The position numbers and the translations under genes were made by a program. Shown one piece after another: positions 549 to 62,535 of a stretch of 64,000 nt of DNA. Under the pieces are notes generated by a model, which made no database searches, was not told the origin of the DNA, and saw only the letters and a program-made list of their open reading frames with translations. How positions within the stretch are numbered: position 1 is the first letter of the stretch; every line of letters starts with the position of its first letter. Source of the DNA: Chaetoceros tenuissimus (Eukaryota > Bacillariophyta > Thalassiosirophyceae > Chaetocerotales > Chaetocerotaceae); contig BLLK01000038.1 of assembly GCA_021927905.1 (NCBI GenBank), forward strand, positions 248,001-312,000, read 5' to 3'.

Positions 549-1073
549 AATCGAATCATACGGGTACAAAATATGATTCGCTAATTGTAAATTTATTTTG
601 AGAATAAAGTTTTAAAAAAATATCACAATGACACAATAATCTCATTTAATTGTTTTCAAAGAGTGCATCGGCAGCCTGCTTTACACATTGATATGAATAT
701 GAATATTATTTGAATAAATTCAGCAGTTCCATATCACTTCTAGTGCACAAGTTTAAAGTCGTCTACTTCAGTTACATTGTAATACATTCGCAGATCAGAT
801 TTCATGTCGTAGGAGTAAAGCCGTTCTTCCTACTTCAACCTTTACTAACGGTTATATTCGACGTAACGGTTATGTAACAAAGCAAAAGCGTCATTGTATT
901 TGTCGTGAAGAAGAAGAGCAGAAGAGAGAGCAGCAAGAGTTATGCAAAAGAAGAGTGCACAGCAGCAGACAAATCTTTTTGCAGCATCGTTCGATATGAG
1001 ATAGAGAATATACCTTATCATTTTCCCTGATATCGATATTTACATACTTCGGTACATATTCTATCTAGCTACA
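549..1073. other. Intergenic region, AT-rich
   Basis: No coding region is seen. The second half holds two copies of a TAACGGTTAT motif and, at about 906-936, a purine-rich stretch just upstream of the LRR gene, probably its promoter and 5' UTR. Confidence 0.6.
844..874 (+). promoter_or_regulatory. Paired TAACGGTTAT motifs upstream of LRR gene
   Basis: Two copies of TAACGGTTAT lie at about 846-855 and 865-874, some 200 bp before the LRR start codon. The core AACGG resembles MYB-type (mitosis-specific activator) sites of plants. A similar motif is present near 4712 and in the gypsy LTRs, so it may simply be common here. A regulatory role is inference. Confidence 0.2.
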
Positions 1074-2696
1074 ATGAGAGTGGAGCAAGTCGATGGTCTC
1101 CTAACTCTCTTCTACGATGGCTCCATCATAGATAATGCCGACATGAATTACGAGCACTACTGTACTTTGGACAACGAGGAAGATCGATCTGAAGAATGTA
1201 AAAAATATGTGAGAGAGCGATATTCATGGCAGCAAATAATAGTCATGGAAGGGGTCTCTATAATTCCAGACGGTACTTTCTACTTGTGCAAGAATATCAA
1301 GAGAGTCATCTTTTCCAGTACGGTGATTAGAATTGAAGAATCTGCATTTTTACTTTGTTCAAGTCTTGTATTTATCAAGTTATCGATACATCTGGAGTAC
1401 ATTGGAGAAAAGGCATTTGACTTTTGCAATCTCAAGAATGTCTTTCTTCCTCCAACATGTGAATGCATTGGCAAGAATTCATTTGCACGTAACGAGAATT
1501 TGACAATCTTCCATGTCCCTCGCCGAGTATGTATATGTAAAAATGCAGTTAAAGATACAAAACTGAAAAAAATTGCTTCAACTCTTAGTGAGGAGGATCA
1601 AAAGAATTGGATCAAGAGCATTAATGATAGTCCCAAGTGTCTACTTCATAAAATCTGCTGCGCTTATCAACCGACAGCGGAAGCTATCCATCAGATACTT
1701 CAAGATAGAGGACTCGAAGCTTTCTATGAAAAGAACTCTATTGGTATCTCGCCTGTTGAGTACTTGCAAGAGAATCCTTTTACTGACATCACAGAAGTGG
1801 ACATTGTTAGAAACTACAAGCAAGGTATTATTCCACCAAACACAATAGAAACGCTTCCTTTCATGCAAGGTGGTCAGTATCTCAGTGTTGCATCCAAAAT
1901 GAAGGTTGGTTTCGTTGGTGGTCTATTTACCCTATTCTACGATGGTTCAGATATTTACGATTATGACTTGAGTACCGAGTATTTTGAACCAGGACATCCT
2001 GGAAATCGATCAGAATCTTTCAGAAAGTGGTGGCATGAACGGCAAACATGGCAGCAAGTAATTGTATTAGAAGGTGTCACAGTGATTCCAGAACAAGCTT
2101 TCTTCTACTGCAAAAACATTGAGAGAATAATTTTTTCCGACACTGTGATTCGGGTTGAAGATCTTGCTGTATGTGGCTGTTCTAGTCTTGTTTACATCAA
2201 GTTATCAAACAACTTGGAGTTCATAGGAGATGATGCATTTGTAGATTCCGCTCTCAAGAGTCTATTTATTCCACCAAGTTGTAGAGAAGTAGATTGTAGT
2301 ATGTTTCAAGGTGTCGAAGGGCTGGAAATCTTACACGTTCCTCGACAAACAGTTTTGCGTTGGAATAGAGGAATAGTCTGTCGACATGATCTGTGTGATG
2401 ATTTGTACCTACAATATCCAGATTTTGATTCTCTCAGCAAGGAAGAACAAGGTAATTGGATCAAGAATATCAATAGCAGTGACAAGCATACGCTCCATAG
2501 AATATGTTGCTCTTTCCAACCTACAGTAAAAGATGTTGTAGAAGTTATGCAAGATAAAGGAGTCAGAGCTTTTTACGAGGAGAACGATGTTGGTTTCACA
2601 CCTTCTCACTATTTGGATGCAAATCCTTTTGCAGAGATATCCGAAATGGAGATTATCAGAACCTACACAATGAGGATGATGGGTGAATGGAAGTAA
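1074..2696 (+). CDS. BspA-like leucine-rich repeat (LRR_5) protein, internally duplicated
   Basis: An intronless 540-residue protein starting at ATG 1074. It consists of two homologous halves, about residues 1-265 and 276-540. Each half opens with 'LxTLFYDGS', continues through 'WQQ(I/V)IV(M/L)EGV' and LRR_5-type repeats ('TFYxCKNI', 'SSLVxIKLS', 'AFxxxxLKxxFxPP'), and closes with a conserved tail ('HKICC/HRICC...AFYEEN...NPF'). The second half begins at a Met (276) where a free-standing copy would start, which suggests fusion of two tandem genes. This LRR class is large in diatoms and its role is unknown; binding or recognition is usually guessed. No signal peptide or membrane segment is seen, so it is probably cytosolic. 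Confidence 0.85.
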   Translation: MRVEQVDGLLTLFYDGSIIDNADMNYEHYCTLDNEEDRSEECKKYVRERYSWQQIIVMEGVSIIPDGTFYLCKNIKRVIFSSTVIRIEESAFLLCSSLVFIKLSIHLEYIGEKAFDFCNLKNVFLPPTCECIGKNSFARNENLTIFHVPRRVCICKNAVKDTKLKKIASTLSEEDQKNWIKSINDSPKCLLHKICCAYQPTAEAIHQILQDRGLEAFYEKNSIGISPVEYLQENPFTDITEVDIVRNYKQGIIPPNTIETLPFMQGGQYLSVASKMKVGFVGGLFTLFYDGSDIYDYDLSTEYFEPGHPGNRSESFRKWWHERQTWQQVIVLEGVTVIPEQAFFYCKNIERIIFSDTVIRVEDLAVCGCSSLVYIKLSNNLEFIGDDAFVDSALKSLFIPPSCREVDCSMFQGVEGLEILHVPRQTVLRWNRGIVCRHDLCDDLYLQYPDFDSLSKEEQGNWIKNINSSDKHTLHRICCSFQPTVKDVVEVMQDKGVRAFYEENDVGFTPSHYLDANPFAEISEMEIIRTYTMRMMGEWK

Positions 2697-10754: not shown

Positions 10755-11809
10755 ATAAGCTAAATATTCATATTAGACTAAAGTGAAAGTTGATAATCAA
10801 CCAATCAATATATTGTGCTTGAAAATCTGATAGTTGTAAGTAATACTGTATTTTTGGAAGAAATAATTCATATTTCCAAAGAAAGCTGACATCTTTTTGA
10901 TGTAGAATCGGATAGCTTGTAAAATTATTATTTTTTATTCTTCATTTGCCTCGTTCTGTCAATCGAATAGGCAGTGTTCTCTGTCGTCATTCAAACATTT
11001 TGTTATTTTCGATAAGGAAACAATGACCATGAGGCTGCCAACTAATTATGAATTCTAGATAATTATTCTCGACAAAATGTAGAAAGGACTGTAGCTTAAG
11101 AGGGAAAAGGTCCGGTCATCTGGCCTTATTTGTATTGAGACATAGACCCACATTCTTTTGCAGTGCTTGTCTTATTAGTTTCGCAGCTTTTGTCATAGAT
11201 GATGACCTGCAAAAATTTCCTTTTGACCTTTAGCTGTGAGACCTTGAGATCGATGAAGTCGTAAGGGTAGTGGATTCGGTTGATTCTGAAATTACTTTGG
11301 GCGCAATTATTCATCAAGTCTACTATCTGAGTTAGCTATATTTTGAACAAGATCATCAAAGAGTTGTATGATAATCATAGAGAGTTCTGGATCAGTACCC
11401 GAATGCTCTACCCAAACTCAACCTACATAGCATCTTATTCTAATCGTAAGAAACAAAATATTTCCTACAATATTCAAAAATCGACATTGTTACTTCTCTA
11501 TTGTACTTTGACTGCAGGGAATACTTGAATCTACTATAAGTGCGTGGATGTGACATTATCAAGTCACTTTGTGCATCGGACCTTAGCTCTACCCGAACTC
11601 TAGCTCATGCATCTTATTGTAATCGTAATGAAAGAAAAGATTTCCTACATACTTCATACAACCGAACCTTCAATTCATTACTTTAGACTTCGGGTTCTAC
11701 TCGGAAAATAATCTTCATTTGCATCTTTGTCGACGGTATGGAACACATCATAAAAAGATCAATATCTTTTTTACAAATTCTTCATAATTGCGATTGTTTT
11801 ACTTGAATC
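10755..11809. other. Intergenic region with two copies of a ~180-bp repeat
   Basis: No protein gene is recognised. From about 11405 to 11690 lie two head-to-tail copies of a ~180-bp repeat that recurs at 20643-20925, on the other side of the SET gene. The remainder is AT-rich and contains the presumed promoter of the SET gene. Confidence 0.5.
11405..11690 (+). repeat. ~180-bp tandem repeat, left pair
   Basis: Two diverged units start with GCTCTACCC at 11405 and 11586 (period about 181). Each continues with a 'CATCTTATT...AATCGTAA' segment and a run ending 'TTTCCTACA'. The first also holds 'TTGTTACTTCTCTATTGTACTT' -like sequence and 'GTGACATTATCAAGTCA', which match the right pair near 20.7 kb. 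The units are not coding. Confidence 0.7.
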
Positions 11810-11870
11810 ATGACTGGAACTTTAGTATCTTCCCATGCTGTTAAGACGCTTGCTTCTTTTCTAGGAAGGA

Positions 11871-11875
11871 ACTTT
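11871..11875. repeat. Target-site duplication ACTTT, left copy (copia)
   Basis: ACTTT directly before the left LTR, repeated exactly after the right LTR at 19569-19573. Five bases is the usual size for copia insertions. Confidence 0.9.
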
Positions 11876-12124
11876 AAACGGAAGGAAGAGATTATACGAA
11901 GCTTGGAATGCTCGAGTGTGGTCAACAATCAGTAGTGATAACAATATCAAGTGTACTTATATATCGAAGTCTAGTTGTTATGAGTACATTAGGTGAGTGA
12001 GTTTCTATTCACCACAAGATCTTTCTGCAGACGAGCGGCTCACAATCGCCGATTTTCTTATCCGTGTTCATACAAGAATTAGTTGACAGACGTCATTAAC
12101 CTAAATGACTTCCACCTCCCAACT
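11876..12124 (-). repeat. Copia LTR, left (3' LTR of element)
   Basis: 249 bp, seen again at 19320-19568 with no difference found by eye. In element orientation it begins AGTTGGGAGG and ends CCTTCCGTTT. Confidence 0.92.
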
Positions 12125-12132
12125 CTCCTCTC
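12125..12132 (-). other. Polypurine tract of the copia element
   Basis: On the minus strand GAGAGGAG lies directly before the 3' LTR, where plus-strand DNA synthesis is primed in LTR elements. Confidence 0.7.
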
Positions 12133-12140
12133 ATTTCAAG

Positions 12141-15100
12141 TTACCAACCCATTAATTTCTTTCTTGCTCTTTCGAATTTAATCTTGCCTAGTCCCTTGGT
12201 GAACTGATCCGCAAGTTGATCATCAGTCCCGATAGCCTTGACTAAGATGTCTTTGTCAACAATATACTTTCGAAAGAAATGATAAGGGATAGCAATATGC
12301 TTTGTACGTGGATTCATCTTCGGCATCATTGCAAACTGTAAGCAAGCATTGTTATCCTCATGCACAACCGTCGGCTTGAGTCTATCTTGTCCAAACGTCT
12401 TCGCAAAGAAAGTATAGTTGCTTTGTACCTTTGAGTCCTTCAATACTATTCCCTTAATCTCCAGGAGTATCTCGCGAATGGCAATAACCTCACGTAATGC
12501 AGTAGACAGGGCTATGTACTCTGCTTCCATAGTACTCAATGCTATCTGTGTCTGTAACTTTGAACTCCAGGAGAGAGGACATCCTAAGAACGTGATGAGA
12601 TATCCAGTCCGAGATTTGACTGATACTGGATCTTGGCTGTCTTCACTTTTCCATAAACCAGCAAAGTCTGCGTCCACATAACAATCAACACCTTGAGATC
12701 CATCTGGACGAAGCAATATACCTTTATCTTTGGTACCTTGGAGATATCTGATGATGCGCTTTACCCCTTCTGCATGAGAGGCTCTGGGATCGTGAGTAAA
12801 TCGAGCACATTGATGAACCGCATAAGCAATGTCAGGTCTGGAGTTGTTTGCTAGATACAATAGCATCCCTACAACCTCTGAGTATTTCCACTCCTCTGTA
12901 AAAGGATCCCCATCAACATCTTTCCCTAGTGGCTCCTCATTTGCTGGAGTGGGTTTTCCATTACATTCTTCCATACAAGCAGCCCTGATCACTTTCTCAG
13001 TCAATCCTGTCTGAGTCAATAGATACGAGTCTCCTTGTTTCTCAATGCGAATTCCAAGGAAATCTCCAACATTCCCTTCATCTCTTAATTCAAAGACCTC
13101 TCTATGTTCATCATCACTGACGCCAAGATCTACGATCAGCTTCTCTATTTCTTTTGAATCAGGACCACAAATAATTGTATCATCAACATACACTACAACC
13201 ATCATGTCCCTTTTGAGAAAGAGGCAGTGATCGACCTCGGACCTTGTAAAACCTCTTTGTTCGAGTCCCGCTCTAAGTTTGTCGTAAAATGACTTTGGCG
13301 CCTGTTTAAGTCCATACAAGCTTTTATTCAGCTTAAACACCGTGTCACGTTTATCATAACGAGGAAACCCTCTAGGTCTCTCTATGTAAACATCTTCTGC
13401 CAATTCAGCCTGGGCAAATGCATTTGTGTAGTCAACCTGTTTGGTAGTCCAGCCATTGACTAGAGTGTGTGTAAGTATTAACCTGACGGTCGACCACTGG
13501 ACAACTGGTGCATACGTCTCAAAGTAATCTACCCCAGCAGTCTGTAAATCGCCTCTAACACAGTATCTGGCTTTAAACTTCAATGGAGTACCATCTGGTC
13601 TCCTCTTGAGCTTGAAGGCCCACGTGCCTGGAAGGATACGAGATTTAGTACCTGACTTAGTAACAGTAGTTCTATCCAGCTCCGTCCAAGTTTGCTGCTT
13701 TAGGAGAGTACGTAGTTCTTTCTTCATTGCCTCCAACCATTGCAGACGCTCTGCACTTTTGCTTGCCATGTCAAAACTAGGCATATCAGGATCAATCTTA
13801 GTTTTGTGTTTTGCAGCATAAGCGCGATGATCCATGTCATTTGGCTGACCAGTGGTTAGATCAACAGAGCTGTCAGCTTGATGTAGAAGAACGTCGTCGA
13901 TGAGGATCTGATCAGTGATGGAGGATGTCTGAGCACGAGTATCAGTAGTAAGCTGATCCTGAACTGCAAGGTTGCATTCTGTAACTGGTGCAGGCTGACC
14001 AAGAAGATTGTATTCATGACTAAATTCACACCCAAAATTGGCAGATGGAGTAAAGGACTCGTATGATTTCTCCGAGACAGTGTGAACATTGAAAGGCTGA
14101 CGCAGCTTTGGAGCACGACCAGAGCGACGAAGAGGTGCAGGAGCACCAGAAGGTGCAACAGAAGGTGCAGGAGCAGGTGATGGAGTACTGTGAGAAGAAG
14201 GAGCAGGCACAGACGGAGCACTGGAATCTGAACTGGGAAGAGAAGAAGAAGGACCTAGAACCGGAGTTACTGTAGAAGATGGATCGATAGTAACTTGACG
14301 AATTCTACTGGAAGCATTCTCAAAGCGACGTTTCTCCTCTAATTCGTCAGGTGGTAGCCATACATCTTCAATTTCGATGCTAGAGTCAGATTCAATGGGA
14401 ATGCGAGTTACAATAGATGGAGAGGCATCATCCCAAGCAAGGCTAAGCTTCTGCCAGAAATCAGGGATTGCATCATCGGTGCCAAGTGAAGAAACTGTAG
14501 AAAAATCATCGTCGAAAACAACATGAAACTGCGGTGAAATGTGACCAGTTTGTAAATTCAAGATAAGTGGAACATCACTAGAGTGAACTGAACTGAAACC
14601 AACGAACATTCCGCGTCTAGCACGAGGATCCCAGCGTGGAAGCTTCTTTCCTTGTTGCAATTTAGGATCCAAGACATACACAGGACACCCCCAAGTATGC
14701 ATTTGAAAGAGCTTATGCCGAGGAAAGGTAGTGCCTGTGAAGAGATCAGCCGGAGCATGACCTTCTTTGTTTGGCAAATGGTTATGTTGATATGCAGCAT
14801 ATTGAACAGCCATAGGCCAAAGGGAGCTGCTGACTGCATCTTTCCAATGGATAGCAGCATGGAGGAGCATAGCTCTAGCTCTATCGGAGACTGTCCTAAT
14901 GTTTCTCTCTGCAATGCCGTTCTGGTGATGCGCATTTACACCACAGTATCTGATCATTTGATTACTGTCGCGGATGTGACGTTCGAAAGAATGTGCCTTG
15001 AAGGTACCATTATCTGCAAGGTACGACTGAATTGTTACGCCATGTGATCCAGCCAACTGCTCAAAGTTTTGTTTAGCTCGAATTGTTTCTGTGGCACTGA

Positions 15101-18100
15101 ACCCTACTTGAAGCTCTACATTGAGATAACCACTCATGTGGTCCACAAACACACATCCTCCTCTATATGAAGTAGCATGTTCTCCTCCAAACGATGTAAA
15201 GGTACGGCCCTTGAGCCGTGACTCAAAGTGATCAACTGATACTCTTTCTCCAGCTCTAAGAATATTGGATTTAAGGTGACCATCGACTGTAGGGTCAGTT
15301 GAAGATATTTTTCCTTTTGTAGTGGTTCTAGCTTGCTTGGCATATTGACAAATTTCGCAACGACATGGAGCACATTTTGCCAAAGGTCTAAATTTCTCCA
15401 GTTTACTGAATGGCAGGCAGCATAATAGGTGCTTTAACTTTTGCATACCAATGTGACCGAAGCGATAATGCCACCGAAGAAAATCTTTCTGAGGTTGTGT
15501 CAGGTTCCTATTATCTTCACTGAGAATACCTAGGTTGGCTTCAGGTGCATTACCAAAATTACGAGCCATACAGACCGGTAGATGTGATTCAGGGCTGTAG
15601 TTAATAAATAGATCTGGAAGTCCCTCTATTTGTAGGACACTGATATCCTCCTCCAAAACATACTTGCCATGGATTCCACGCTGCTTGCTAAAGATCCGTT
15701 GCGGAGATAAGAGTCGAGCTTTTGCATTTGGAACATAATAGCACCGAATCCGAAGAATTACATCTCTGTCTCCTCCAGTTTTGAATGTCCATTGAACAGT
15801 GCCTTCACCTTCTATAGGAAGTCCATTTGCTAAGCCTCCAAGATACCGATTGTGTAGCTTTACTATTGATCCGGGAACAAAATCATCCTTACAAGGTGAT
15901 ATGGCTAGACTAGCACCTGTATCAAAAACTATAGGAAATGCTTCTCCAATATTCTGAGGGAAGAGATCAACATTGCCAAGAAGACCTGCTGTACATGCCA
16001 AAGGAGACGGAGCACCAACATCATGGGAAGAGCCAAAGTCGCGACCATCCACCACCAAATATTTATCCAAGGAAGATAGATTGAAATCCCACGGTGAAAA
16101 GAAAGGCAATATCCCACCATCAGCATCAAAGAAAGTTTCAGCGGAGTCAATGTCAGAGACAGCATCAAAGAAGAAGTCAAGAGGTTCAATGTATTCTGAG
16201 AGAGGCATTGTCATTAACTGGTCCTCCTCCTGCTCTACCGGCGGAACAAATAAGGAGACAAGGTGAGCACCACGATGACAATGGAAATGAAGCAGAAAGA
16301 CTGGATCTGGATCAAGAAATGTAGAGAGACTGGTCTGACGATGCCATGTTTCCTGCAAAGGCTGAAGCAGATGTCGATCCACTGGTGGAGTGTAACCAAA
16401 GAGACGTGGAGCATTGTGTGTAAGTTGTAGACATGACAGAAGCATCCAAGCACGAGGGTATCTGCGAAGAGAGAAAGAAGAAACTTTGACTGGTGAAGAT
16501 TGTGATGAGAGCCATCCAGAGGCCAGACATTCCAAGGAGTCCCAAAGAACAGCGCTAAGGAACCAGGTGAGACGACAAGCAAAAGCATAAGCCAGCTGAA
16601 GTGGAGCTGTAAGGCACGTGAATACTGGCATGATCTCCTCCAAAAACCATAACTGTGGTGTAAAGTTAAAGTTGTTGTTGGAAGTATTGGCATCACATTC
16701 GATCTGTTCCAAAGCATCATGGAAAGTATCTTCTACATCATCTTCATCAGCAGGAGCCTGCTCCTCTGCATCAAAGAAGTGATCAGAGTCTGAACTAAGA
16801 CAACAGGAATAAAGAGAAAGAGCATTTACTTTATCCGTGATGTCTACAGTGCTATCCAACTCCTCCGATGTCTCAAACTCTGGAATACTAGAGACAGCAG
16901 TATCATCATCAAGGTAGCCAGCAGGAACGTCCTCTCGAGCAATCACTGGGGGATAAGTGACGAGGTGTTGACGGATCTGAGCCAAAAGAGTGTACTGAGA
17001 TTCAGTAGCAACCGGACATTCTCTGGAACTGAACAGATATTCAAGATGAACACCAGTGGAGAGATCATTTCCAAGGCCAACAGCAAGAAGCTGTCCACTT
17101 GCATCAGTGGGCTTCCATGCAGTAAGTAATGGAGGAAGCTCCATATTCGACCCAACCACAACAAACTTATCCCTACAACGTCTGATTTCACGGAAGCATT
17201 GCAATCCACGATCATACACTGACAACTTATAGAACAATCCACCGGACTTAGGAGGAGAGATAATCATTCCGTACAAATTCTCCTTCTTTCCTGTTGAAAT
17301 TTGAACCGAGTTCAGGATTCTGACATAAGCACCTTTGCTTGCTGGAATGGAGGACTCGTGTCCTGCAGTAGTTTGTGCCATGAAAGCAGTCCCACTCATA
17401 TCCCAGGTCTCAAACATCATCTCATCATCGACATCATCCCACTCAGCCATCTGTTTCTCCACAGCATCCTTGCTGGATGCATTTTGAATAATTGCTGGTG
17501 TATCATCCTCGGCATCGACGACTTCAGCCAAGAAACCAAGAGCTTGAGCTGTGAAGGCTCCAGCATACATCCCATTTGGATCAGAAGGGTCCAAGGCTGC
17601 ATCAGTGGCAGGCAATACTTCCCCGAGATTACCTTCAGAACCAGGGCTAGATGAGCCAGAATCAGTAGCAGCAGATGCATCAGCAGCGGCGCGATGCTTC
17701 CCATGGTCAGAAGTGGAATGCATCCTAGGGCCAGTAGTAAAGAAACCGACTTGACCAGTCTGACGATAGGTACAAAGAGCACAGAATTTGTAGATTTGAC
17801 CAGCAACCTCACAAGTAGCATTCTCATCTTTGGGATGGACGAGACGCCAAGGTGCCATTGGACGACGCTCTTTCTTATCTTTGTCTTCAGAGCTAGCACC
17901 AGGACCAGGCTTAGTTTTATCATGTCCACCTCCTCCTGCAGATCTAGAAGACTTAAACTCATGCTTGCCTTGATCAGAAGTTCCAAAGCAAGGACAATGA
18001 GAAGAGTTACAAAGATGAAAGAAACTGCCACAATCCCAACAAAATTTCCCATTTGGATTTTTCTGTGTAGAAACAGAACCAAGGTTGCCTTCAGCCGACG

Positions 18101-19268
18101 GAATACGCTCAACGATCCAACGTCCATGACCAACTTCTTGACGATACGTAGTTGACACCTTCTCACACAATTGCCAAATATTATAAGTTTGATAATGAGA
18201 ATGGCGCTGAATCTCAAGCGGAGACTTGTGCTGTCCTACCGAGTCCTCCATTTCTAATACTTTCTGAAGAGCAAGGGAAATCTGAAAGTTAAAGTTAGGA
18301 CAACAGGTGTTGTTCACTTTGTACAGAAAGGTGGACTGCACATTGTAAGGAAGGCAATAACCGCTGTCCATGATGCGAAGGTATTTGAGAACATCTTTTA
18401 CCAGATCACCCACATTTTCACCAGGATAAGAAATAAGCTTAAGTGCTTCGAAGGACTTGCGAGCTTCATCAATGTCATACGTAACCAGATTATTTGTGTG
18501 CTCTAGAGCCAGCATCAAGAGAACCTGCCCAGGCAAATAAGCAAATTGGGAGATGTCGGTATAGGCTGTCTGCAGGTCCGAGTATAACTGAGAAGAGAGA
18601 TAGGACTGTACAAGCGCATGGGACAAAGCAAAATCAGAAGTCTCGAAGATATCATAGCCACGAGCACATTCATTGGAGTATCTAGCACGAAAAACATGGT
18701 CATCAGTGACACATTTGAGTGTGAAGTCATGGATATTTTCAGTAATCAGCTTGGGTCTATTATCCAGAGCATGCGGAGAGAAAAGGGATTCAAGGCCATA
18801 CACTTTAATATCACCATTCAAACGCTGAAGAAATTCAACTTTCCCTAACTGCTTAGCATTTGCCTCTGTTTCCATGCTCCCATGAAACTGTAACCAATTG
18901 GAGGAATTGACACGGTTCCTAACACTAGATAGATGCTCATTGATAGTCTTCTGGCTACGAAGTTGGCCTCCACCACGATAGGTTGTCTCTCCAGCACGTG
19001 TTTTCAGGAGGTATGTTTTAGGATCGATGGATGCACCACCAACATATACAGCTCCAAGGAACTCGATGTATCCGCCTCGTAATGGCCTCGTTGCATCCGG
19101 CTTGAAGTCTGGGTCTTTGAAGTCTGGATTTAGGTCTATTCCACCAAATCCCTTCAAAACACTAGCGTAATCCTTGGTTTTCCTTCTGGACTCTAGTAGC
19201 CCACCAGTTCTGCCAGTGTCAGGAGTTGTAGTTGACGACTCACTCAACAAATCTTCGTTCTCACCCAT
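12141..19268 (-). CDS. Copia Gag-Pol polyprotein
   Basis: One uninterrupted frame of 2,375 residues. Rough order: gag-like region (1-400); a Cys/His-rich knuckle-like segment (about 408); a low-complexity linker; aspartic protease with 'FDTGA' (about 1117); integrase with the zinc-binding HHCC region (about 1266-1300) and the D,D,E core (about 1344-1460, 'ADNGTF', 'NGIAERN'); a Ser/Pro-rich linker; reverse transcriptase (about 1900-2100) with 'YVDD' (about 2026); RNase H (about 2200-2300, 'STMEAEYIA'). Integrase before reverse transcriptase is the copia order. All enzyme signatures are in place, so the element looks whole. Confidence 0.93.
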   Translation of the reverse strand: MGENEDLLSESSTTTPDTGRTGGLLESRRKTKDYASVLKGFGGIDLNPDFKDPDFKPDATRPLRGGYIEFLGAVYVGGASIDPKTYLLKTRAGETTYRGGGQLRSQKTINEHLSSVRNRVNSSNWLQFHGSMETEANAKQLGKVEFLQRLNGDIKVYGLESLFSPHALDNRPKLITENIHDFTLKCVTDDHVFRARYSNECARGYDIFETSDFALSHALVQSYLSSQLYSDLQTAYTDISQFAYLPGQVLLMLALEHTNNLVTYDIDEARKSFEALKLISYPGENVGDLVKDVLKYLRIMDSGYCLPYNVQSTFLYKVNNTCCPNFNFQISLALQKVLEMEDSVGQHKSPLEIQRHSHYQTYNIWQLCEKVSTTYRQEVGHGRWIVERIPSAEGNLGSVSTQKNPNGKFCWDCGSFFHLCNSSHCPCFGTSDQGKHEFKSSRSAGGGGHDKTKPGPGASSEDKDKKERRPMAPWRLVHPKDENATCEVAGQIYKFCALCTYRQTGQVGFFTTGPRMHSTSDHGKHRAAADASAATDSGSSSPGSEGNLGEVLPATDAALDPSDPNGMYAGAFTAQALGFLAEVVDAEDDTPAIIQNASSKDAVEKQMAEWDDVDDEMMFETWDMSGTAFMAQTTAGHESSIPASKGAYVRILNSVQISTGKKENLYGMIISPPKSGGLFYKLSVYDRGLQCFREIRRCRDKFVVVGSNMELPPLLTAWKPTDASGQLLAVGLGNDLSTGVHLEYLFSSRECPVATESQYTLLAQIRQHLVTYPPVIAREDVPAGYLDDDTAVSSIPEFETSEELDSTVDITDKVNALSLYSCCLSSDSDHFFDAEEQAPADEDDVEDTFHDALEQIECDANTSNNNFNFTPQLWFLEEIMPVFTCLTAPLQLAYAFACRLTWFLSAVLWDSLECLASGWLSSQSSPVKVSSFSLRRYPRAWMLLSCLQLTHNAPRLFGYTPPVDRHLLQPLQETWHRQTSLSTFLDPDPVFLLHFHCHRGAHLVSLFVPPVEQEEDQLMTMPLSEYIEPLDFFFDAVSDIDSAETFFDADGGILPFFSPWDFNLSSLDKYLVVDGRDFGSSHDVGAPSPLACTAGLLGNVDLFPQNIGEAFPIVFDTGASLAISPCKDDFVPGSIVKLHNRYLGGLANGLPIEGEGTVQWTFKTGGDRDVILRIRCYYVPNAKARLLSPQRIFSKQRGIHGKYVLEEDISVLQIEGLPDLFINYSPESHLPVCMARNFGNAPEANLGILSEDNRNLTQPQKDFLRWHYRFGHIGMQKLKHLLCCLPFSKLEKFRPLAKCAPCRCEICQYAKQARTTTKGKISSTDPTVDGHLKSNILRAGERVSVDHFESRLKGRTFTSFGGEHATSYRGGCVFVDHMSGYLNVELQVGFSATETIRAKQNFEQLAGSHGVTIQSYLADNGTFKAHSFERHIRDSNQMIRYCGVNAHHQNGIAERNIRTVSDRARAMLLHAAIHWKDAVSSSLWPMAVQYAAYQHNHLPNKEGHAPADLFTGTTFPRHKLFQMHTWGCPVYVLDPKLQQGKKLPRWDPRARRGMFVGFSSVHSSDVPLILNLQTGHISPQFHVVFDDDFSTVSSLGTDDAIPDFWQKLSLAWDDASPSIVTRIPIESDSSIEIEDVWLPPDELEEKRRFENASSRIRQVTIDPSSTVTPVLGPSSSLPSSDSSAPSVPAPSSHSTPSPAPAPSVAPSGAPAPLRRSGRAPKLRQPFNVHTVSEKSYESFTPSANFGCEFSHEYNLLGQPAPVTECNLAVQDQLTTDTRAQTSSITDQILIDDVLLHQADSSVDLTTGQPNDMDHRAYAAKHKTKIDPDMPSFDMASKSAERLQWLEAMKKELRTLLKQQTWTELDRTTVTKSGTKSRILPGTWAFKLKRRPDGTPLKFKARYCVRGDLQTAGVDYFETYAPVVQWSTVRLILTHTLVNGWTTKQVDYTNAFAQAELAEDVYIERPRGFPRYDKRDTVFKLNKSLYGLKQAPKSFYDKLRAGLEQRGFTRSEVDHCLFLKRDMMVVVYVDDTIICGPDSKEIEKLIVDLGVSDDEHREVFELRDEGNVGDFLGIRIEKQGDSYLLTQTGLTEKVIRAACMEECNGKPTPANEEPLGKDVDGDPFTEEWKYSEVVGMLLYLANNSRPDIAYAVHQCARFTHDPRASHAEGVKRIIRYLQGTKDKGILLRPDGSQGVDCYVDADFAGLWKSEDSQDPVSVKSRTGYLITFLGCPLSWSSKLQTQIALSTMEAEYIALSTALREVIAIREILLEIKGIVLKDSKVQSNYTFFAKTFGQDRLKPTVVHEDNNACLQFAMMPKMNPRTKHIAIPYHFFRKYIVDKDILVKAIGTDDQLADQFTKGLGKIKFERARKKLMGW

Positions 19269-19307
19269 AGTTTCTGTTAATACTTGTAGAATAAACTATG
19301 GTCGTTC

Positions 19308-19319
19308 GGGCTCATAACC
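19308..19319 (-). other. Copia primer-binding site, half-tRNA (initiator Met) type
   Basis: Directly inside the 5' LTR the minus strand reads GGTTATGAGCCC, the complement of GGGCTCATAACC. This is the anticodon stem-loop of a CAU (initiator Met) tRNA, not a tRNA 3' end. Drosophila copia and yeast Ty5 use such an internal fragment (half-tRNA) as primer. The match is seen; its use here is inference. Confidence 0.7.
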
Positions 19320-19568
19320 AAACGGAAGGAAGAGATTATACGAAGCTTGGAATGCTCGAGTGTGGTCAACAATCAGTAGTGATAACAATATCAAGTGTAC
19401 TTATATATCGAAGTCTAGTTGTTATGAGTACATTAGGTGAGTGAGTTTCTATTCACCACAAGATCTTTCTGCAGACGAGCGGCTCACAATCGCCGATTTT
19501 CTTATCCGTGTTCATACAAGAATTAGTTGACAGACGTCATTAACCTAAATGACTTCCACCTCCCAACT
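19320..19568 (-). repeat. Copia LTR, right (5' LTR of element)
   Basis: 249 bp, no difference from 11876-12124 seen by eye. Promoter of the element in element orientation. Confidence 0.92.
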
Positions 19569-19573
19569 ACTTT
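19569..19573. repeat. Target-site duplication ACTTT, right copy (copia)
   Basis: Exact match of 11871-11875, next to the right LTR. The SET-gene frame resumes right after it. Confidence 0.9.
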
Positions 19574-20270
19574 TCCTCAGACGCTTTTATCGAAGAAGAA
19601 AGTACTTTCTTTCCTCTACCTTGTCAACGCGCCTATAGCAACATTGATGGGCAAGGTTGGAGTATCAATACAACAGTAAGAAAATCTCAAATCCCTGGAG
19701 CAGGAAATGGGAGGTAAGCTTACTTGGAATATTCTACTCGTTCATGAGTATTTCATGAGTAATTTTTAAATGATTCTCTACTTCTATAGATTTTCGAATG
19801 AGAATGTTCCCAAGAATACCGTTGTTATGGAGAAGTATATGATTCCAATGTCTGAAGTGAAATCACTCTATGATGTAGGAGATGACGCTGTAATTCTTTT
19901 CAAGAATGAAAACGAAATCGAAGACTTCATTCATCTGTATCAAGAAGAAGGAAATCAAACTCGCGAAGATACCATGCATTGCCTTGCTCACTTTATTTGG
20001 TCTCTTGAGGAATTAAAGGATACGGTAGCATTGAACTTTTCTACATGGTCTGTAAATCACGGTGATCCCAAGAGAGGCGAAAACATTCGTTTCTATGTTC
20101 ATAAGCGTAAAATCCTTGCGAAGACAGTGAAAGATGTGAGTGCAGGTGATGAACTTCTAAATGACTATCGTTATTTCGATAACATGGATGATTTTTGGAT
20201 CCAGTTTTGCAAGAAAGAAGGAAAAAAGGATGTTATTACAAATTTGAGACAATTTGTTGATATTTCTTAA

Positions 20271-21172
20271 TGCAATGGCCTCCCCTCAATGCCGCCCAAA
20301 TCTATATAATACATACTTCATTTAAAATTAAGAAACTACTTTATTCTGTAATGCCAAGGTTATCTATTCCTATTTTTCAAAATTGTATTCTTCACGAAAA
20401 CTTTGAACTAAGAAGGTTGGAAGAAAAATTCAAAATCTCAACCTCAGAAGAGAGTTCAGATCAGTTTCAGTTCCCTCTGAATCTTCTTAAGTTTCAGAGA
20501 AATTCCAGGATTCTCCGAAAGAAGCCTATGAGGCAGATCGCACTAATACCATTATACGGGTATGTACCAAGATGGAGCTATGAATTAGTGAATGTATGTA
20601 CCTATTAGCTTCAGTAGCACTTTCTGAATTGTACCCTAGCTAGCTCTACCCGAACCCTACTTGCATAGCATCTTATTGTAGTCGTTGTTATATAGATAAG
20701 ATTTCCTACAGATTAAATATTGACAATTGTTACTTCTCTATTGTACTTACACTAAAGGGAATAATTTAATCAAGTGCGATGAGGATGTGACATTATCAAG
20801 TCATATGTGACCCTTGCTGCTCTGCCCGAACCTGCTGCATAATCTTATTCTAGTCGTTATATAATAAGATTTCCTGCAGAATTAACATTGACAATTGTTA
20901 CTTCTCTATTGCTCTTCTTCAGTGATGGCATCTCCATTTTAGTTTCTCATTCGAAAAAACATTTCAAGCCTTTCGTACAAATCAATTTTCTCATGACAAA
21001 ATTCAAGAATATTAGTAGATCTCTGTTGCCGGCCTCGAGTTTAGAAAAATTGAGTTTGCACAGGACGAGGTGAGAACCAATAATAAAATTCCTCGGTAAG
21101 GAAGTTTATTTTTATCACAACCTAAACCGTTCCTTTCGTTATCTTGGTATTATAGCTGCAATTCCTTTTTTG
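20271..21172. other. Intergenic region with ~180-bp repeat pair
   Basis: It holds the SET-gene 3' end, two ~180-bp repeat units (20643-20925) and the presumed upstream region of the EF-hand gene. At about 20994-21069 an ATG opens a short frame followed by a GTGAGA donor; this could be a 5' exon of the next gene, but the frames do not join cleanly, so it is not called. Confidence 0.45.
20643..20925 (+). repeat. ~180-bp tandem repeat, right pair
   Basis: Two units start at 20643 (GCTCTACCC) and 20819 (GCTCTGCCC), period about 176. They share with the left pair the 'CATCTTATT' segment, 'AAGATTTCCTACA', 'TTGTTACTTCTCTATTG' and 'GATGTGACATTATCAAGTCA'. The second unit ends in the region before the EF-hand gene. 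Confidence 0.7.
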
Positions 21173-22997: not shown

Positions 22998-23354
22998 AAC
23001 GTAAGGAAATTTTTCTAAACATTGATATCTTCACTTTTAGAACATAAAAACCTCATTACTATAAATGTGCCCAACTCTTGACGCCTGCACCTGCCGCCAG
23101 CCGAAGATATGCATACAAACACTGCTTCAAATAATATTTCGAATCGAATCGGTATGATGAGTATGTAACTAGCCAGTAGTACGTGGCTAGAAAGGTTTTG
23201 GATGACGTCACGCTTTCTCACATCATCATCGGAAAAACAGATACAGTAGAACCTTACGTATTACGTACCGTACCATTATAGATGATGTGAATCAAATCAT
23301 TAGATACAACTTATCCATCTCATCGAGTTAGTTTCAACTAGAAATATTCCGAAG
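22998..23354. other. Intergenic region
   Basis: About 360 bp, no gene seen. It is the upstream region of the thylakoid-lumen protein gene. Confidence 0.5.
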
Positions 23355-24029
23355 ATGAATAAGTTCTCCATCATTTCTCTTCTTCTGTTGGCATGTAGTG
23401 AAGAAGGATTGGCATTCGCCCCTTCTGCAGCATCCACCATCAGCACTACTTCGCCCTCAGGCACCACATCAACTCAGATTAATGTAGAATCAAGAAGAGA
23501 AGTACTAAAGAACTCTGCAGCAATCTTTGTATCTACAACAGCTGGATACTCACTACCTTCCATTGCTCATGCAGCGGAATCGCAGCAAGATAAATTGGAC
23601 AAGGAGAATCTTGTGAAAGGATACAAAAGACTTCAATATCTTTTGGATAATTGGGAAAAAGAGACAACAATTTGCGGAAGGACCGATAACCCATACATTG
23701 GATGCGAACGTACCCCAGAGAAAGTCATGGTTTATCTTGGCTTTAAGAGCATGAATGATCCTTTGTTCAGAGCGGATAAGGCAATGTTTCGTCTTCAAAA
23801 ATATGTTGACTCGGATTTAGAAATTGATTACATTGAGGCAGTTGAATTGTTTAGTGAAAAGGCGGAAGAAGCAAGTAATACTGCTTTTATATCCAGTTGG
23901 GGTGAAGCAAATCCTGGCGGCGGAAAAGACAGAGTTGAAATGTTTATTGAACGCTCCAAAAAGCAGGTAGAGACAGCAAAAGATTCGCTAGGGACTGCCA
24001 TCAAGCTTCTTGGACTAGAAATTAAATAA
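23355..24029 (+). CDS. Thylakoid-lumen protein of unknown function
   Basis: An intronless 224-residue protein, ATG at 23355. It carries a three-part targeting leader: a signal peptide (residues 1-20), the diatom plastid motif 'LAFAP' at the cleavage site, then a twin-arginine-like lumen signal ('SRREVL', hydrophobic stretch, 'AHA' cleavage near residue 74). The mature part is about 150 residues, mostly helical, with 'LLDNWEKETT', a pair of Cys ('ICGR' and 'GCER') and 'YLGFKSMNDPLFRADKAM'. This pattern recalls helical extrinsic proteins of photosystem II in algae, but I do not recognise it as a named subunit. Tat-type export into the lumen is inferred from the RR pair. Confidence 0.75.
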   Translation: MNKFSIISLLLLACSEEGLAFAPSAASTISTTSPSGTTSTQINVESRREVLKNSAAIFVSTTAGYSLPSIAHAAESQQDKLDKENLVKGYKRLQYLLDNWEKETTICGRTDNPYIGCERTPEKVMVYLGFKSMNDPLFRADKAMFRLQKYVDSDLEIDYIEAVELFSEKAEEASNTAFISSWGEANPGGGKDRVEMFIERSKKQVETAKDSLGTAIKLLGLEIK

Positions 24030-25268: not shown

Positions 25269-25617
25269 CGCCACAAACTATCTCGTTTTACGGAATGAAA
25301 TCCAGAGAAGATTGAAATATTAGACTTGCAATATTCATTAACTTGACCATTGACCAGTGTGTCCGAATTTTGCACTCAATAGCTGTGAGAATGAATGGTG
25401 ATAAGAATGAGAAGATGCTTCAATTCATTCCTAAAAGCGGGACTCGATGCTCAAAACCTAAAGATGATAAGGAATTCACACATCAAACATCAAACATTAA
25501 AGATCCAAAAAGTATCTTGATGAGATTTTTCGGGCTTCGTAATTCCATACTTCATAATTACACAAATACCATTCTCAACATCATTAATCTATAACCCTTA
25601 ACTTTTTAATATATACA
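25269..25617. other. Divergent promoter region DPH7 / cytochrome c6
   Basis: 349 bp between two start codons. An open stretch at 25343-25594 has no ATG start and no family features; not called. Confidence 0.5.
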
Positions 25618-26234
25618 ATGAAATCGGCTTTGAGAGCTATCTGCATTCTTGCGCTAAGTTTCACAGAGGTCGAAGCGTTTTCTTTTCATTCTCTAATCAG
25701 GAGTACTACTAGTAACATTTCTTCAGATAAGTTGGACACTTCAAGAATCCATGACAGTTTGGAAGGGGGTTCAAAAACAGTACAGAATATTTTACAAAAA
25801 GTACCTGTCGTCTTTGCAGCTTCTCTAATACAGATATCAGTAATGGCATCTCCAGTTCATGCAGAAGTTGATATTGCGAAGGGTAGTGAGATCTTTACGG
25901 GTAATTGTGCTGGTTGTCATGCAGGTGGGATGAACTTCGTAAAACCAAATAAGGATCTCAAGAAAGAATCTCTGCAAAAATTTGTCAGTGCTTCTTTGGA
26001 TAAAGATGAAGTGAAGGATTGGGTTATGAAGTCTGGTCAACATTCTAGAATGGTGAGTGAAAATACTTTGCACACAAGAAAGCCACTTTTCTTTTTTCTA
26101 ATTAATTCAACGATGTTCTTAATGATGATTAGGTCTTTATGAAAGCTCCAAGTGGAAATGGAAAGTTGACTGAAGCAGAGTTTGCAGATGTTACTGCATT
26201 TATCGTTGACCAAGCATCTGGCGACAAGTGGTAA
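25618..26234 (+). CDS. petJ: Cytochrome c6, plastid precursor
   Basis: Two exons, 25618-26052 and 26133-26234, with an 80-nt GTGAGT...TAG intron in phase 0; 178 residues. The leader has a signal peptide ending 'VEAF' (plastid-entry Phe), a transit region, and a hydrophobic lumen signal ending 'VHA' before 'EVDIAKG'. The mature protein, about 90 residues, has the haem site CAGCH (His as axial ligand), and in exon 2 '[14 protein letters not shown]', whose Met is the likely second ligand, then '[11 protein letters not shown]'. Cytochrome c6 is the soluble lumen carrier between the cytochrome b6f complex and photosystem I, and takes the place of plastocyanin in many diatoms. The haem motif is intact. 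Confidence 0.9.
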
Positions 26235-41522: not shown

Positions 41523-41738
41523 TGCTACAGATGGTAGCTAACGGTTAGGATAACGCATCCTGACCTGACATGGATTATGTTTAGCATTGGCAGAATTCTT
41601 TGGTTCTATTCTTCTTCCGTTACGTCATCAGAATTCTGATAAGAATTCTGTCTCTTTTATATTCGGAACAAACATTCTTTTAGGTAGCGATTAGTAACAT
41701 AATTCCCATCTAATTACTTTGAATCCTTCGTTGTATCA
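41523..41738 (+). repeat. Gypsy LTR, left (5')
   Basis: 216 bp, starts TG and ends CA. No difference from 46092-46307 seen by eye. Confidence 0.9.
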
Positions 41739-41757
41739 CTAGTAATTTCAAGTTGCA

Positions 41758-42246
41758 GTGAACCTTATGATGATTAGGTTCTGCGGAGGGCGTTCTGGAG
41801 GAGATGCTCTTCTAGAGTACCTGCGTTCTGATAAAGTGAGAAAGGAAAAGAGCAAGAGTGTTGCGGAGCATGTAGGGAGATTCTGTACTCTTGTAGGATA
41901 TGCCAAGGAACTCTTGAGAATCGTAGCGCCAAGACCTGATGATAACCTTGAGAAGAAGCTTGTTTTTGATTCCTTCCCATATCAATGGAAGTTGAATTTC
42001 ACCAATTCAGGAGCTGTGTATCATGAAAAGTCTATCAATGAGATTAGTGAGTACATGGAACGCCAGAAGAGTACTGCAGATGCTGATACTTCCAAGAAAC
42101 GTGCTCGTCATCAAGATCTGAAGAATCAGAAGTTCAAGCAGCGTAAGAAAGGAAACAGACGCGGTCAGACTGGTGGCTTCAGAAACCAGTGTACCAGACA
42201 TGAGCCTCCACATAATAATCATGAATGGGAGGATTGCATTCTGTAA
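41758..42246 (+). CDS. Gypsy gag-like fragment
   Basis: An open frame of about 160 residues directly after the 5' LTR, with a basic C-terminal stretch ('KFKQRKKGNRRGQ'), as in nucleocapsid regions. It is much shorter than a usual gag. Position is the main support. Confidence 0.45.
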   Translation: MNLMMIRFCGGRSGGDALLEYLRSDKVRKEKSKSVAEHVGRFCTLVGYAKELLRIVAPRPDDNLEKKLVFDSFPYQWKLNFTNSGAVYHEKSINEISEYMERQKSTADADTSKKRARHQDLKNQKFKQRKKGNRRGQTGGFRNQCTRHEPPHNNHEWEDCIL

Positions 42247-42639
42247 TCCAAGAAGTGCCAATTTCCGTGTCTTTACTGGTGAAGCAGAGGCCGAGGAGGC
42301 AGAGGCCGTGGCAAAAATATAAGGCAGAGGCCGTGGTAACGGTGGATGAAGAGGTCATCATCCACCACTAAAATAATTTGAATACTCACTCAAGGGGTAA
42401 CTCCGGAACAATCAAGGACATGGTACAGAAAGCAACTCAATTATCAAGGAACTCAAAATAATAACAAATGAATACTCGTAGCAATTCAATGAATAAAGGA
42501 CCAGACAGGGTTCGAATGGCAGTAATGAACAACACTTCCTCATGGAGAAGCACAATTTCTGATTCCGCACATCAGTTGTGCAATGATTAAGGTCCATGAT
42601 TAAATAGGCTCGAAGGTTATTTTGTGAGGACTGCTGTTG

Positions 42640-43740
42640 GAAACGAAAATTTCCATTATTTCTGGGAATTCAATATCACAAGTGGAAGAATCTCTTTCAG
42701 TTAATGTAATTTCAAGCAGTCTCATCCAATTTTATTGTCTGAAATGTTTATTAATGTGTAAACGCTTTTTCCTTTGTAACTTGGAGAATGCTTCTGGGGA
42801 TATGCAATTAGCGCAGTTCAGAAGACTCCTCTGAGACTCTTTACGACAGATGAATCCTCTGCGCTCGTTGTACAAAGAAGGATATTTGTATGACGCAGTA
42901 TTCTCCACCCGCGGTGGGAAGCTCTTCAGTGCGGTGAAGAAAAAATGAGTCTTCAACGAAAACTTCTTTAGTTGCTACAGAAACTAAGGAGATTTGCATC
43001 GCGATGCGAAATAGAAGAACTGAGCTAGTGTTCAATATGGACATATCTCCGTGAACAGTTACTATGAATCCTTGGCACACGGTCAGTAGATGGCTAATTG
43101 GACCATCAAACAATATGTGCGGAGTAACAAAATATGCCGTGACAATGGTTGATCAAGATACTATATTGTTGGAAGCAGTGCGCTTGAACATGATGGAGCA
43201 AATCATCAGGATGTTGTTTGAAAATAATTGGCTTCTTAGTACTCCTAGACCGGACAATGTCTTGGATGGACATCAGGAGGTGAATAGGTCGTCAGAGTTT
43301 AACCATGTTGAATAGGTTTAATATCATACCAAGTGGAGGATCACTACCAGAAAGTCCAAGTATAATAGTCAGGAAAAAAGTAGCAGATGCTCAATTCAAT
43401 TGATCTAACATTGAAGAACTACATCGTGTACTGGACGACTCACTACGCTATTTGAGATACTTTAGTATATCCTGTTTAGCATTGTTGAACTTGCTCAAGC
43501 CTGAAATGAATCGTCAGAGTCCCCTTACAAGGTTATATGCATTGATTTCCTTCAAGGAATTGTTGATCGTTTGGTCAGCAAGGTGTTCTTTCTCCCGAAC
43601 CGATCCATCTGGACTGCTCCAACTTTCATTATTCCAAAGAAGGACGGTCGGGTACGCTGGGAAGCGATTTTATTATCTAATTAAGAATTTATCGAAAACA
43701 AGTAAATTATAGAAGATTTGAGGGTCCGAAAGGAGAAAAA
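42640..43740 (+). repeat. Rearranged, decayed internal copy of the gypsy pol region
   Basis: The stretch at about 42685-43360 matches, in collapsed form, the integrase region at about 44785-45555 of the same element. Further on, fragments related to the front of reverse transcriptase and the end of pol appear. It is a fossil mosaic with many changes. Confidence 0.65.
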
Positions 43741-43748
43741 TTACAAAT

Positions 43749-46052: not shown

Positions 46053-46080
46053 TGATGACTGCCCAGCATTGGTCAGTCAT

Positions 46081-46091
46081 GAGGAGAAGAG
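46081..46091 (+). other. Polypurine tract of the gypsy element
   Basis: GAGGAGAAGAG directly before the 3' LTR. Confidence 0.65.
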
Positions 46092-46307
46092 TGCTACAGA
46101 TGGTAGCTAACGGTTAGGATAACGCATCCTGACCTGACATGGATTATGTTTAGCATTGGCAGAATTCTTTGGTTCTATTCTTCTTCCGTTACGTCATCAG
46201 AATTCTGATAAGAATTCTGTCTCTTTTATATTCGGAACAAACATTCTTTTAGGTAGCGATTAGTAACATAATTCCCATCTAATTACTTTGAATCCTTCGT
46301 TGTATCA
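46092..46307 (+). repeat. Gypsy LTR, right (3')
   Basis: 216 bp, no difference from the left LTR seen by eye; followed by the GGTTT duplication. Confidence 0.9.
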
Positions 46308-61828: not shown

Positions 61829-61926
61829 AGCGAAAGGGGATAAAAATAAATGTAAAAATGTGATCAAAAAAGTTTGTTATTGAATCTAAATTTGCAGCTT
61901 ATTTTGGTACTCCTATTCATCAAACA

Positions 61927-62151: not shown

Positions 62152-62446
62152 ATTTTTTGAAAAATCTTAATTGTGTCCAGAGCATGGAGGACCTAAGCCC
62201 TCTAAAAAATGTCAAAAGGTGTTGTCTGATGGAACGACCTGTTGAAATTACAATGCGCCGAACTTGTAGAGAAAAACAGCGGAAGTTGTCAAGAAAAAGA
62301 AAAGGTGAACTACAGTGACATCATCAAAGAATTAACGCAAGAAGAAATAGAGAAAAAGGTGAAGTGAGTACTTTCTATTTTAAGAGTTCTAGCTAGGACT
62401 GTTGAAAGACTCCAAAGAAAAGTGAAAGAACTAAATAGGAAGAATA

Positions 62447-62535
62447 GAAGAGAGAATTATTGCAAAGGAGATGTCTTGGATCGTTGAAAATTTCGGCAAC
62501 GTATGTACGTAAAGCCTAAGGGTGAAAAAATGAGT
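62447..62535 (+). pseudogene. Decayed copy of ShK-like tail
   Basis: The stretch matches 61762-61850 (end of the ShK gene) over about 85 bp: 'TGCAAAGGAGATGTCTTGGA' and 'CAACGTATG' are shared. It differs by several substitutions and small gaps and no longer codes for the Cys pattern. Confidence 0.6.

What the first reader, a model, noticed from the sequence alone, without database searches (positions are those of the whole stretch)
11810..20270. SET-domain gene split by a very recent copia insertion
The host frame enters the left ACTTT duplication and continues in the same phase just after the right one; the intron and last exon downstream are intact. The LTRs look identical. The gene therefore was whole until very recently and may still be whole on the other haplotype, giving a presence/absence polymorphism in a possible methyltransferase. 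The element lies in the opposite direction, so antisense effects are possible too.
Basis: partly seen in the sequence, partly recalled or inferred. Interest (0 to 1): 0.75.

Follow-up and report, generated by a model that had tools for sequence, protein, structure and literature searches.

The report
Young copia element splitting algal gene
A complete jumping gene has landed, apparently recently, inside the first coding stretch of a small gene with a weak SET-domain match, probably in a diatom; this is an ordinary kind of mutation, and whether an unbroken copy survives on the sister chromosome is unknown.

Summary
A 7,693-bp copia-type LTR retrotransposon (11876-19568, minus strand) has two 249-bp LTRs without a difference, a 5-bp ACTTT target duplication (11871-11875, 19569-19573) and one open 2,384-codon gag-pol frame with protease, integrase, RT and RNase H motifs. 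Without the element and one target copy, the frame from ATG 11810 runs in phase through 19574-19713, a predicted 76-nt GT-AG intron and 19790-20270: 228 codons with a weak SET match (Pfam E 3e-4, 0.9 bits under the curated cut-off). 'Very recent' is softer than it sounds: zero differences in 249 bp allow up to about 12.6 million generations (95%) at the measured diatom rate. The empty allele is untested but plausible; one-haplotype copia insertions are published for a diatom. The 22 codons left of the element are not clearly coding (another frame scores higher) and no homologue was found, so the 5' gene model is inferred. Ordinary insertional disruption; interest is local.

The parts
11810..11875 (+). 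5' part of the interrupted coding exon (22 codons, ATG start), including the left ACTTT duplication
   Evidence: in phase with the right part; first ATG after an in-frame stop. Weak: codon score +2.7 bits in this frame, reached by 18 of 58 non-coding ATG-started open 66-mers; one minus-strand frame scores +9.1
11871..11875 (.). left target-site duplication ACTTT
11876..12124 (-). 3' LTR of the element (249 bp)
   Evidence: identical to the other LTR
12125..12137 (-). purine-rich stretch (GAAATGAGAGGAG) directly before the 3' LTR, probable polypurine tract
   Evidence: sequence; place of a PPT as stated in PMC8515867 (passages)
12141..19295 (-). gag-pol frame, 2,384 codons stop to stop: PR (DTGA at residue 1125), INT (HYRFGH 1276, CxxC 1308 and 1313, DNG 1428), RT (YVDD 2036), RNase H (DADFAG 2208, EAEY 2257)
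   Evidence: (RVT_2 E 1.3e-47, gag_pre-integrs 2.7e-8, SH3_retrovirus 3.2e-8, Pol_BBD 1.9e-4 below its cut-off); motif-to-enzyme labels recalled; no CCHC knuckle by simple pattern
19300..19319 (-). probable primer-binding site directly after the 5' LTR; its complement resembles an initiator-type tRNA-Met anticodon arm (half-tRNA priming, as in hemiviruses)
   Evidence: GGGCTCATAACC at 19308-19319; 0.10 expected in shuffles with up to 1 mismatch; the tRNA comparison is recalled
19320..19568 (-). 5' LTR (249 bp)
19569..19573 (.). right target-site duplication ACTTT
19574..19713 (+). rest of the interrupted exon; encodes the glycine-rich GxG-like SET motif (IPGAGNG)
   Evidence: codon score +9.6 bits in this frame, negative in the five others
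19714..19789 (+). 76-nt GT-AG intron (predicted)
19790..20270 (+). last exon with stop codon; SET-like core (SVNHGDP, DELLNDY)
   Evidence: PF00856 E 3.6e-4 for 19773-20267 alone

Best explanation
A complete, potentially autonomous copia-type LTR retrotransposon integrated in antisense, by ordinary integrase-made 5-bp staggered cuts, about 66 nt into the coding sequence of a two-exon gene with a weak SET-domain match, in an alga that is probably a diatom. On this haplotype the normal transcript would meet a stop 57 nt inside the left LTR and give a 41-residue peptide. The SET-like part lies downstream, cut off from its start codon. The assembled allele is therefore most likely a loss-of-function allele, with an empty allele likely but not shown on the other haplotype or in other strains. 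Shown: LTRs, TSD, phase, truncated reading. Inferred: gene start at 11810, splicing, loss of function, polymorphism, host group.
For: Identical 249-bp LTRs and TSD. Uninterrupted gag-pol with the PR, INT, RT and RNase H motifs looked for. Gene frame in phase across the insertion and open through exon 2. Weak SET match in the joined frame (E 3.1e-4) and in the last exon alone (3.6e-4). No in-frame ATG between the last in-frame stop in the LTR (19550) and the intron, so a start must lie left of the element if 19574-19713 is translated. Read-in peptide of 41 residues ending at 11933. Codon score in frame +9.6 bits for 19574-19713 (other five frames negative) and +42 for 19791-20267. Precedent for one-haplotype copia insertions in Phaeodactylum tricornutum (PMC2806351 and PMC8147415, passages).
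Against: The 22 codons left of the element are not distinguishable from non-coding open stretches (18 of 58 score as high), and a minus-strand frame of the same 66 nt scores higher (+9.1). A 90-nt window at 19604 within the right part scores only -0.1 in frame. A first exon further upstream joined at 11864 or 19580 is possible on paper; joined at 19580 it would put the element in an intron. The SET score is below the Pfam cut-off, and no homologue was found to fix the N-terminus. The fold of the last exon was too poor to use (mean pLDDT 46).
Confidence: 0.77

Rival explanations
1. The insertion is intronic: the true first coding exon lies upstream and is joined at the acceptor ACTTTTCCTCAG|ACGC (19580) just right of the element, so the element only lengthens an intron and the gene still works.
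For: 19580 is preceded by a pyrimidine-rich tract made of the LTR end and the right target copy. Three upstream ATG/donor pairs with at least 4 of 6 donor matches keep the frame to 19580: donor 11236 (ATG 11199), donors 11446 and 11503 (ATG 11403).
Against: The pairs at 11446 and 11503 start beside and run into a dispersed repeat (11405-11649, also at 20643-20878); the pair at 11236 does not, and stays open as a possibility. The upstream 1 kb shows no sustained coding signal (one 90-nt window of +7 bits at 11240, a 31-codon stretch bounded by stops). This rival leaves the in-phase ATG at 11810 to chance (7.4% of control positions).
Confidence: 0.08
2. The gene starts after the right LTR: the piece 11810-11875 is a chance frame.
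For: An ATG at 19770 in the intron opens 19770-20270 (166 codons), and 19773-20267 alone matches SET (E 3.6e-4).
Against: 19574-19713 has positive codon usage in frame only (+9.6 bits) and encodes the glycine-rich stretch at the start of the SET match, but no in-frame ATG. A start at 19770 would leave that exon untranslated and read intron sequence.
Confidence: 0.09
3. The copy is already a pseudogene for other reasons, or the joined structure is a misassembly.
For: One assembly only; no reads and no second strain available.
Against: No stop in 206 codons right of the element; exact TSD and LTR anatomy is not expected from a misassembly (inference).
Confidence: 0.05

Closest known systems
CoDi copia-like LTR retrotransposons of diatoms (PMC2806351)
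   Same: Copia domains, length within the reported 5,182-8,062 bp (7,693 bp here), LTR within 153-844 bp, LTR identity in the reported 94-100%; many insertions on one haplotype (passages and section 18).
   Different: LTRs here start AGTT and end GTTT instead of TG...CA; the paper reports TG/CA in 23 of 26 families. The paper's cloned new-site sequences were not inside genes; this one is in a probable coding exon.
Hemivirus-type (half-tRNA-primed) Pseudoviridae
   Same: PBS resembling the tRNA-Met anticodon arm rather than the tRNA 3' end; [quoted passage not shown]
   Different: The profile lists fungi, plants and animals as hosts; the tRNA identity was not tested.
Haplotype-specific copia insertions in Phaeodactylum tricornutum (PMC8147415)
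   Same: Copia insertions often confined to one haplotype and ongoing (33 novel insertions reported; abstract passage and text passages).
   Different: Here the empty allele has not been observed.

Membership tests
Ty1/copia LTR retrotransposon (Pseudoviridae) | Two LTRs flanked by a short target duplication | tested here: met
   249-bp identical LTRs, ACTTT on both sides
Ty1/copia LTR retrotransposon (Pseudoviridae) | Order protease, integrase, RT, RNase H with RVT_2-type RT | tested here: met
Ty1/copia LTR retrotransposon (Pseudoviridae) | LTR ends TG...CA (usual, not universal: absent in 3 of 26 diatom families) | tested here: not met
   AGTT...GTTT
Hemivirus-type priming | PBS complementary to an internal (half) initiator tRNA-Met | tested here: inconclusive
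   GGGCTCATAACC abuts the 5' LTR; no host tRNA-Met in the window (one search found one tRNA, Thr)
CoDi lineage | Phylogenetic grouping of the RT with diatom CoDi elements | not testable with these tools
   no eukaryotic collection held; an RT scan of viral contigs confirmed none
SET-domain protein | Profile match at or above the curated Pfam score | tested here: not met
   21.5 bits vs 22.4 cut-off, E 3.1e-4; hence 'SET-like', not filed as a certain member
SET-domain protein | Motifs GxG, NH, ELxxDY in order | tested here: met
   IPGAGNG, SVNHGDP, DELLNDY seen by eye; motif roles recalled; the usual NHxCxPN cysteine is not seen
SET-domain protein | SET fold | tested here: inconclusive
   single-sequence model of the last exon, mean pLDDT 46, not used

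The most novel reading that the evidence does not exclude
The interrupted allele is not dead: the antisense LTRs supply a new intron. A donor in the left LTR (11916, GTGTGG, 3 of 6 consensus bases) joined to the acceptor right of the element (19580) would keep the frame from ATG 11810 into the SET-like part, so the element would be spliced out as part of a 7.7-kb intron.
Probability: 0.04. Interest if true: 0.5.

Novelty: new member of a known kind. Interest (0 to 1): 0.22.

Why it matters
A full-length copia element with identical LTRs in a probable coding exon is a good marker locus for asking whether such insertions persist in the heterozygous state in a planktonic alga and what they do to a possible methyltransferase. 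In kind it is expected: a published diatom genome shows many haplotype-specific copia insertions (PMC2806351, PMC8147415). The extra value lies in the exact break point, the antisense direction and the probable half-tRNA primer site.

Tried and rejected
Homologues to fix the N-terminus: the joined 228-aa protein against viral contigs (2 stretches matched a pattern, 0 confirmed), the last exon against prokaryote genomes (25 stretches, 0 confirmed), and PDB sequences (five chains at E up to 10; three are named EZH2, E 0.15-0.36, one is a further chain matched in the same stretch, E 0.24, and one is UBX domain protein 7, E 0.23; none significant). RT piece against viral contigs (1 stretch, 0 confirmed). 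These scans use short exact peptide patterns, so distant relatives would be missed, and no eukaryotic collection was held.

Structure: AlphaFold on 19770-20267 alone gave mean pLDDT 46; no fold search was run on it.

Coding test of 11810-11875: one search looked favourable at first, but its three minus-strand values were one frame, trimmed. The corrected run shows a minus-strand frame with a higher score (+9.1) than the gene's own (+2.7). I lowered the main confidence from 0.80 to 0.77 and raised two rivals by 0.01 each for that reason.

Host: a nuclear cytochrome c6 gene (25615-26139) and copia plus gypsy elements suggest a diatom; no tool named the organism. The protein at 23352-24029, at first taken for a PsbQ-like subunit, had no PDB hit up to E 0.01 and no Pfam hit up to E 1, so that label was dropped. 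A literature lead to Chaetoceros (3 papers listed) gave nothing to test; passages of PMC7466962 and the listing added nothing decisive.

A 19-mer containing the putative PBS complement has 0 exact matches in prokaryote genomes, which neither supports nor excludes a eukaryotic tRNA.

Full report
What is there. The window carries two exact 249-bp direct repeats, 11876-12124 and 19320-19568 (confirmed identical). They are bounded by ACTTT at 11871-11875 and 19569-19573. Between them one stop-to-stop frame of 2,384 codons is open on the minus strand (12141-19295). Pfam finds RVT_2 (E 1.3e-47), gag_pre-integrs (2.7e-8), the retroviral SH3-like domain (3.2e-8) and, below its cut-off, the Pol beta-barrel domain (1.9e-4). 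Motifs appear in the order DTGA (residue 1125), HYRFGH (1276), CxxC (1308, 1313), DNG (1428), YVDD (2036), DADFAG (2208), EAEY (2257). That is the copia order protease, integrase, RT, RNase H (motif labels recalled). A purine-rich stretch abuts the 3' LTR. A sequence whose complement contains GGGCTCATAACC, like an initiator tRNA-Met anticodon arm (recalled), abuts the 5' LTR. The LTRs do not begin with TG or end with CA. In published diatom copia families TG/CA is present in 23 of 26 (PMC2806351, section 18 read).

The interrupted gene. ATG 11810 follows an in-frame stop by two codons. 66 nt later the element begins, and after the right ACTTT the frame goes on at 19574 in phase, through a predicted GT-AG intron (19714-19789), to a stop at 20268-20270. 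The joined frame, and the last exon alone, match the Pfam SET domain at E 3.1e-4 and 3.6e-4, slightly under the curated cut-off (21.5 and 21.3 vs 22.4 bits). The motifs IPGAGNG, SVNHGDP and DELLNDY fall in SET order (recalled). PDB sequence search gave no significant match; the best was an EZH2 chain at E 0.15. 'Possible methyltransferase' is the most that can be said.

Does the gene begin left of the element? Codon scores were trained on 12 host ORFs of the window (6,680 codons). The part 19574-19713 scores +9.6 bits in the gene frame and negatively in the five others, although a 90-nt window at 19604 is flat (-0.1). The last exon scores +42. The 66 nt left of the element score +2.7 bits in the gene frame, -24.7 and -6.7 in the other plus frames, and -14.3, +9.1 and -7.0 on the minus strand, so the gene frame is not the best there. 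In stretches taken as non-coding, 697 of 2,760 open 66-mers (25%), and 18 of 58 with an ATG start, score at least +2.7. At 6,214 such positions, 7.4% have an ATG-started frame of at least 22 codons reaching them in a given frame. The better argument is negative. Right of the element the frame has a stop at 19550 and then no ATG before the intron; the next ATG in frame is at 19770 inside the intron, and starting there would leave the glycine-rich stretch untranslated. A first exon further upstream, spliced at 11864 or 19580, is possible on paper. Of the three upstream ATG/donor pairs with at least 4 of 6 donor matches that keep the frame to 19580, two (ATG 11403) run into a dispersed repeat (11405-11649) and one (ATG 11199, donor 11236) does not. 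The upstream kilobase shows no sustained coding signal. I give 0.77 to an insertion in a coding exon and 0.08 to an intronic one.

Consequence. Translation from 11810 would run 19 codons into the left LTR and stop at 11933, giving a 41-residue peptide. The element lies in antisense, so its 5' LTR, the right one, would transcribe away from the SET-like exons, across the element towards the left flank. Antisense RNA over 11810-11875 and beyond is conceivable; no transcript data were at hand.

Age. Zero differences in 249 bp give a 95% upper bound of 0.006 substitutions per site per lineage. At 4.77e-10 per site per generation, measured in Phaeodactylum tricornutum (PMC6604790, abstract seen), that is about 12.6 million generations. 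'Very recent' is thus compatible but not shown. The second pair of LTRs in the window is also identical (216 bp, 41523-41738 and 46092-46307), with a GGTTT duplication, so both LTR elements with paired LTRs found by the self-comparison look young.

Polymorphism. No genome is held and no reads were at hand. In P. tricornutum, copia insertions often sit on just one haplotype (PMC2806351, passages; PMC8147415, passages), and 33 novel copia insertions were reported there (PMC8147415, abstract passage). An empty allele is therefore a reasonable expectation and the first thing to test.

Host. No tool names the organism. The window holds a nuclear cytochrome c6 gene, a phosphoketolase, an ankyrin-PP2C, Nup84/107, adaptin, MgtC-like and BspA-type LRR genes, and copia and gypsy elements. 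A diatom is my inference.

Verdict. Its interpretation is right in kind, somewhat overstated in age and in the SET assignment, and untested on polymorphism. It is a normal insertional mutation by a known kind of element.

Noticed in passing
41523-46307 (+): Second young LTR element: 216-bp identical LTRs (TGCTACAG...GTATCA), GGTTT target duplication, gypsy-type RT/RNase H/integrase frame 43722-46052. Inside it, 42735-43369 and 44853-45566 are 72% alike, so its internal part looks rearranged.
   Followed up: partly
19300-19319 (-): Putative primer-binding site of the copia element resembles the complement of an initiator tRNA-Met anticodon arm, directly after the 5' LTR: probable half-tRNA (hemivirus-like) priming in an alga. 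Among the titles and abstract openings listed (15 of 19 papers; 12 of 255; 3 of 3) I saw none that reports this for diatoms; full texts were not read for it.
   Followed up: partly
11405-11649, 20643-20911: Related non-coding repeat units (CTCTACCCGAAC...CATCTTATT...GATTTCCTACA...TTGTTACTTCTC) lie on both sides of the SET-like gene, two per side, 75-85% alike; origin unknown.
   Followed up: partly
11240-11335 (+): Short protein-like stretch of 31 codons between stops (a 90-nt window scores +7 bits) in the otherwise non-coding gap upstream; perhaps a gene remnant.
   Followed up: partly
11810-11875 (-): One minus-strand frame of the 66-nt left piece has a higher codon score (+9.1 bits) than the gene's own frame; taken as chance over so short a stretch, but not tested.
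   Followed up: no
1005-2696 (+): BspA-type leucine-rich-repeat gene with two alike halves (70.7% and 68.1% DNA identity in two pairs of stretches).
   Followed up: no
61749-61847, 62435-62531: About 99-bp repeat, 85% alike.
   Followed up: no
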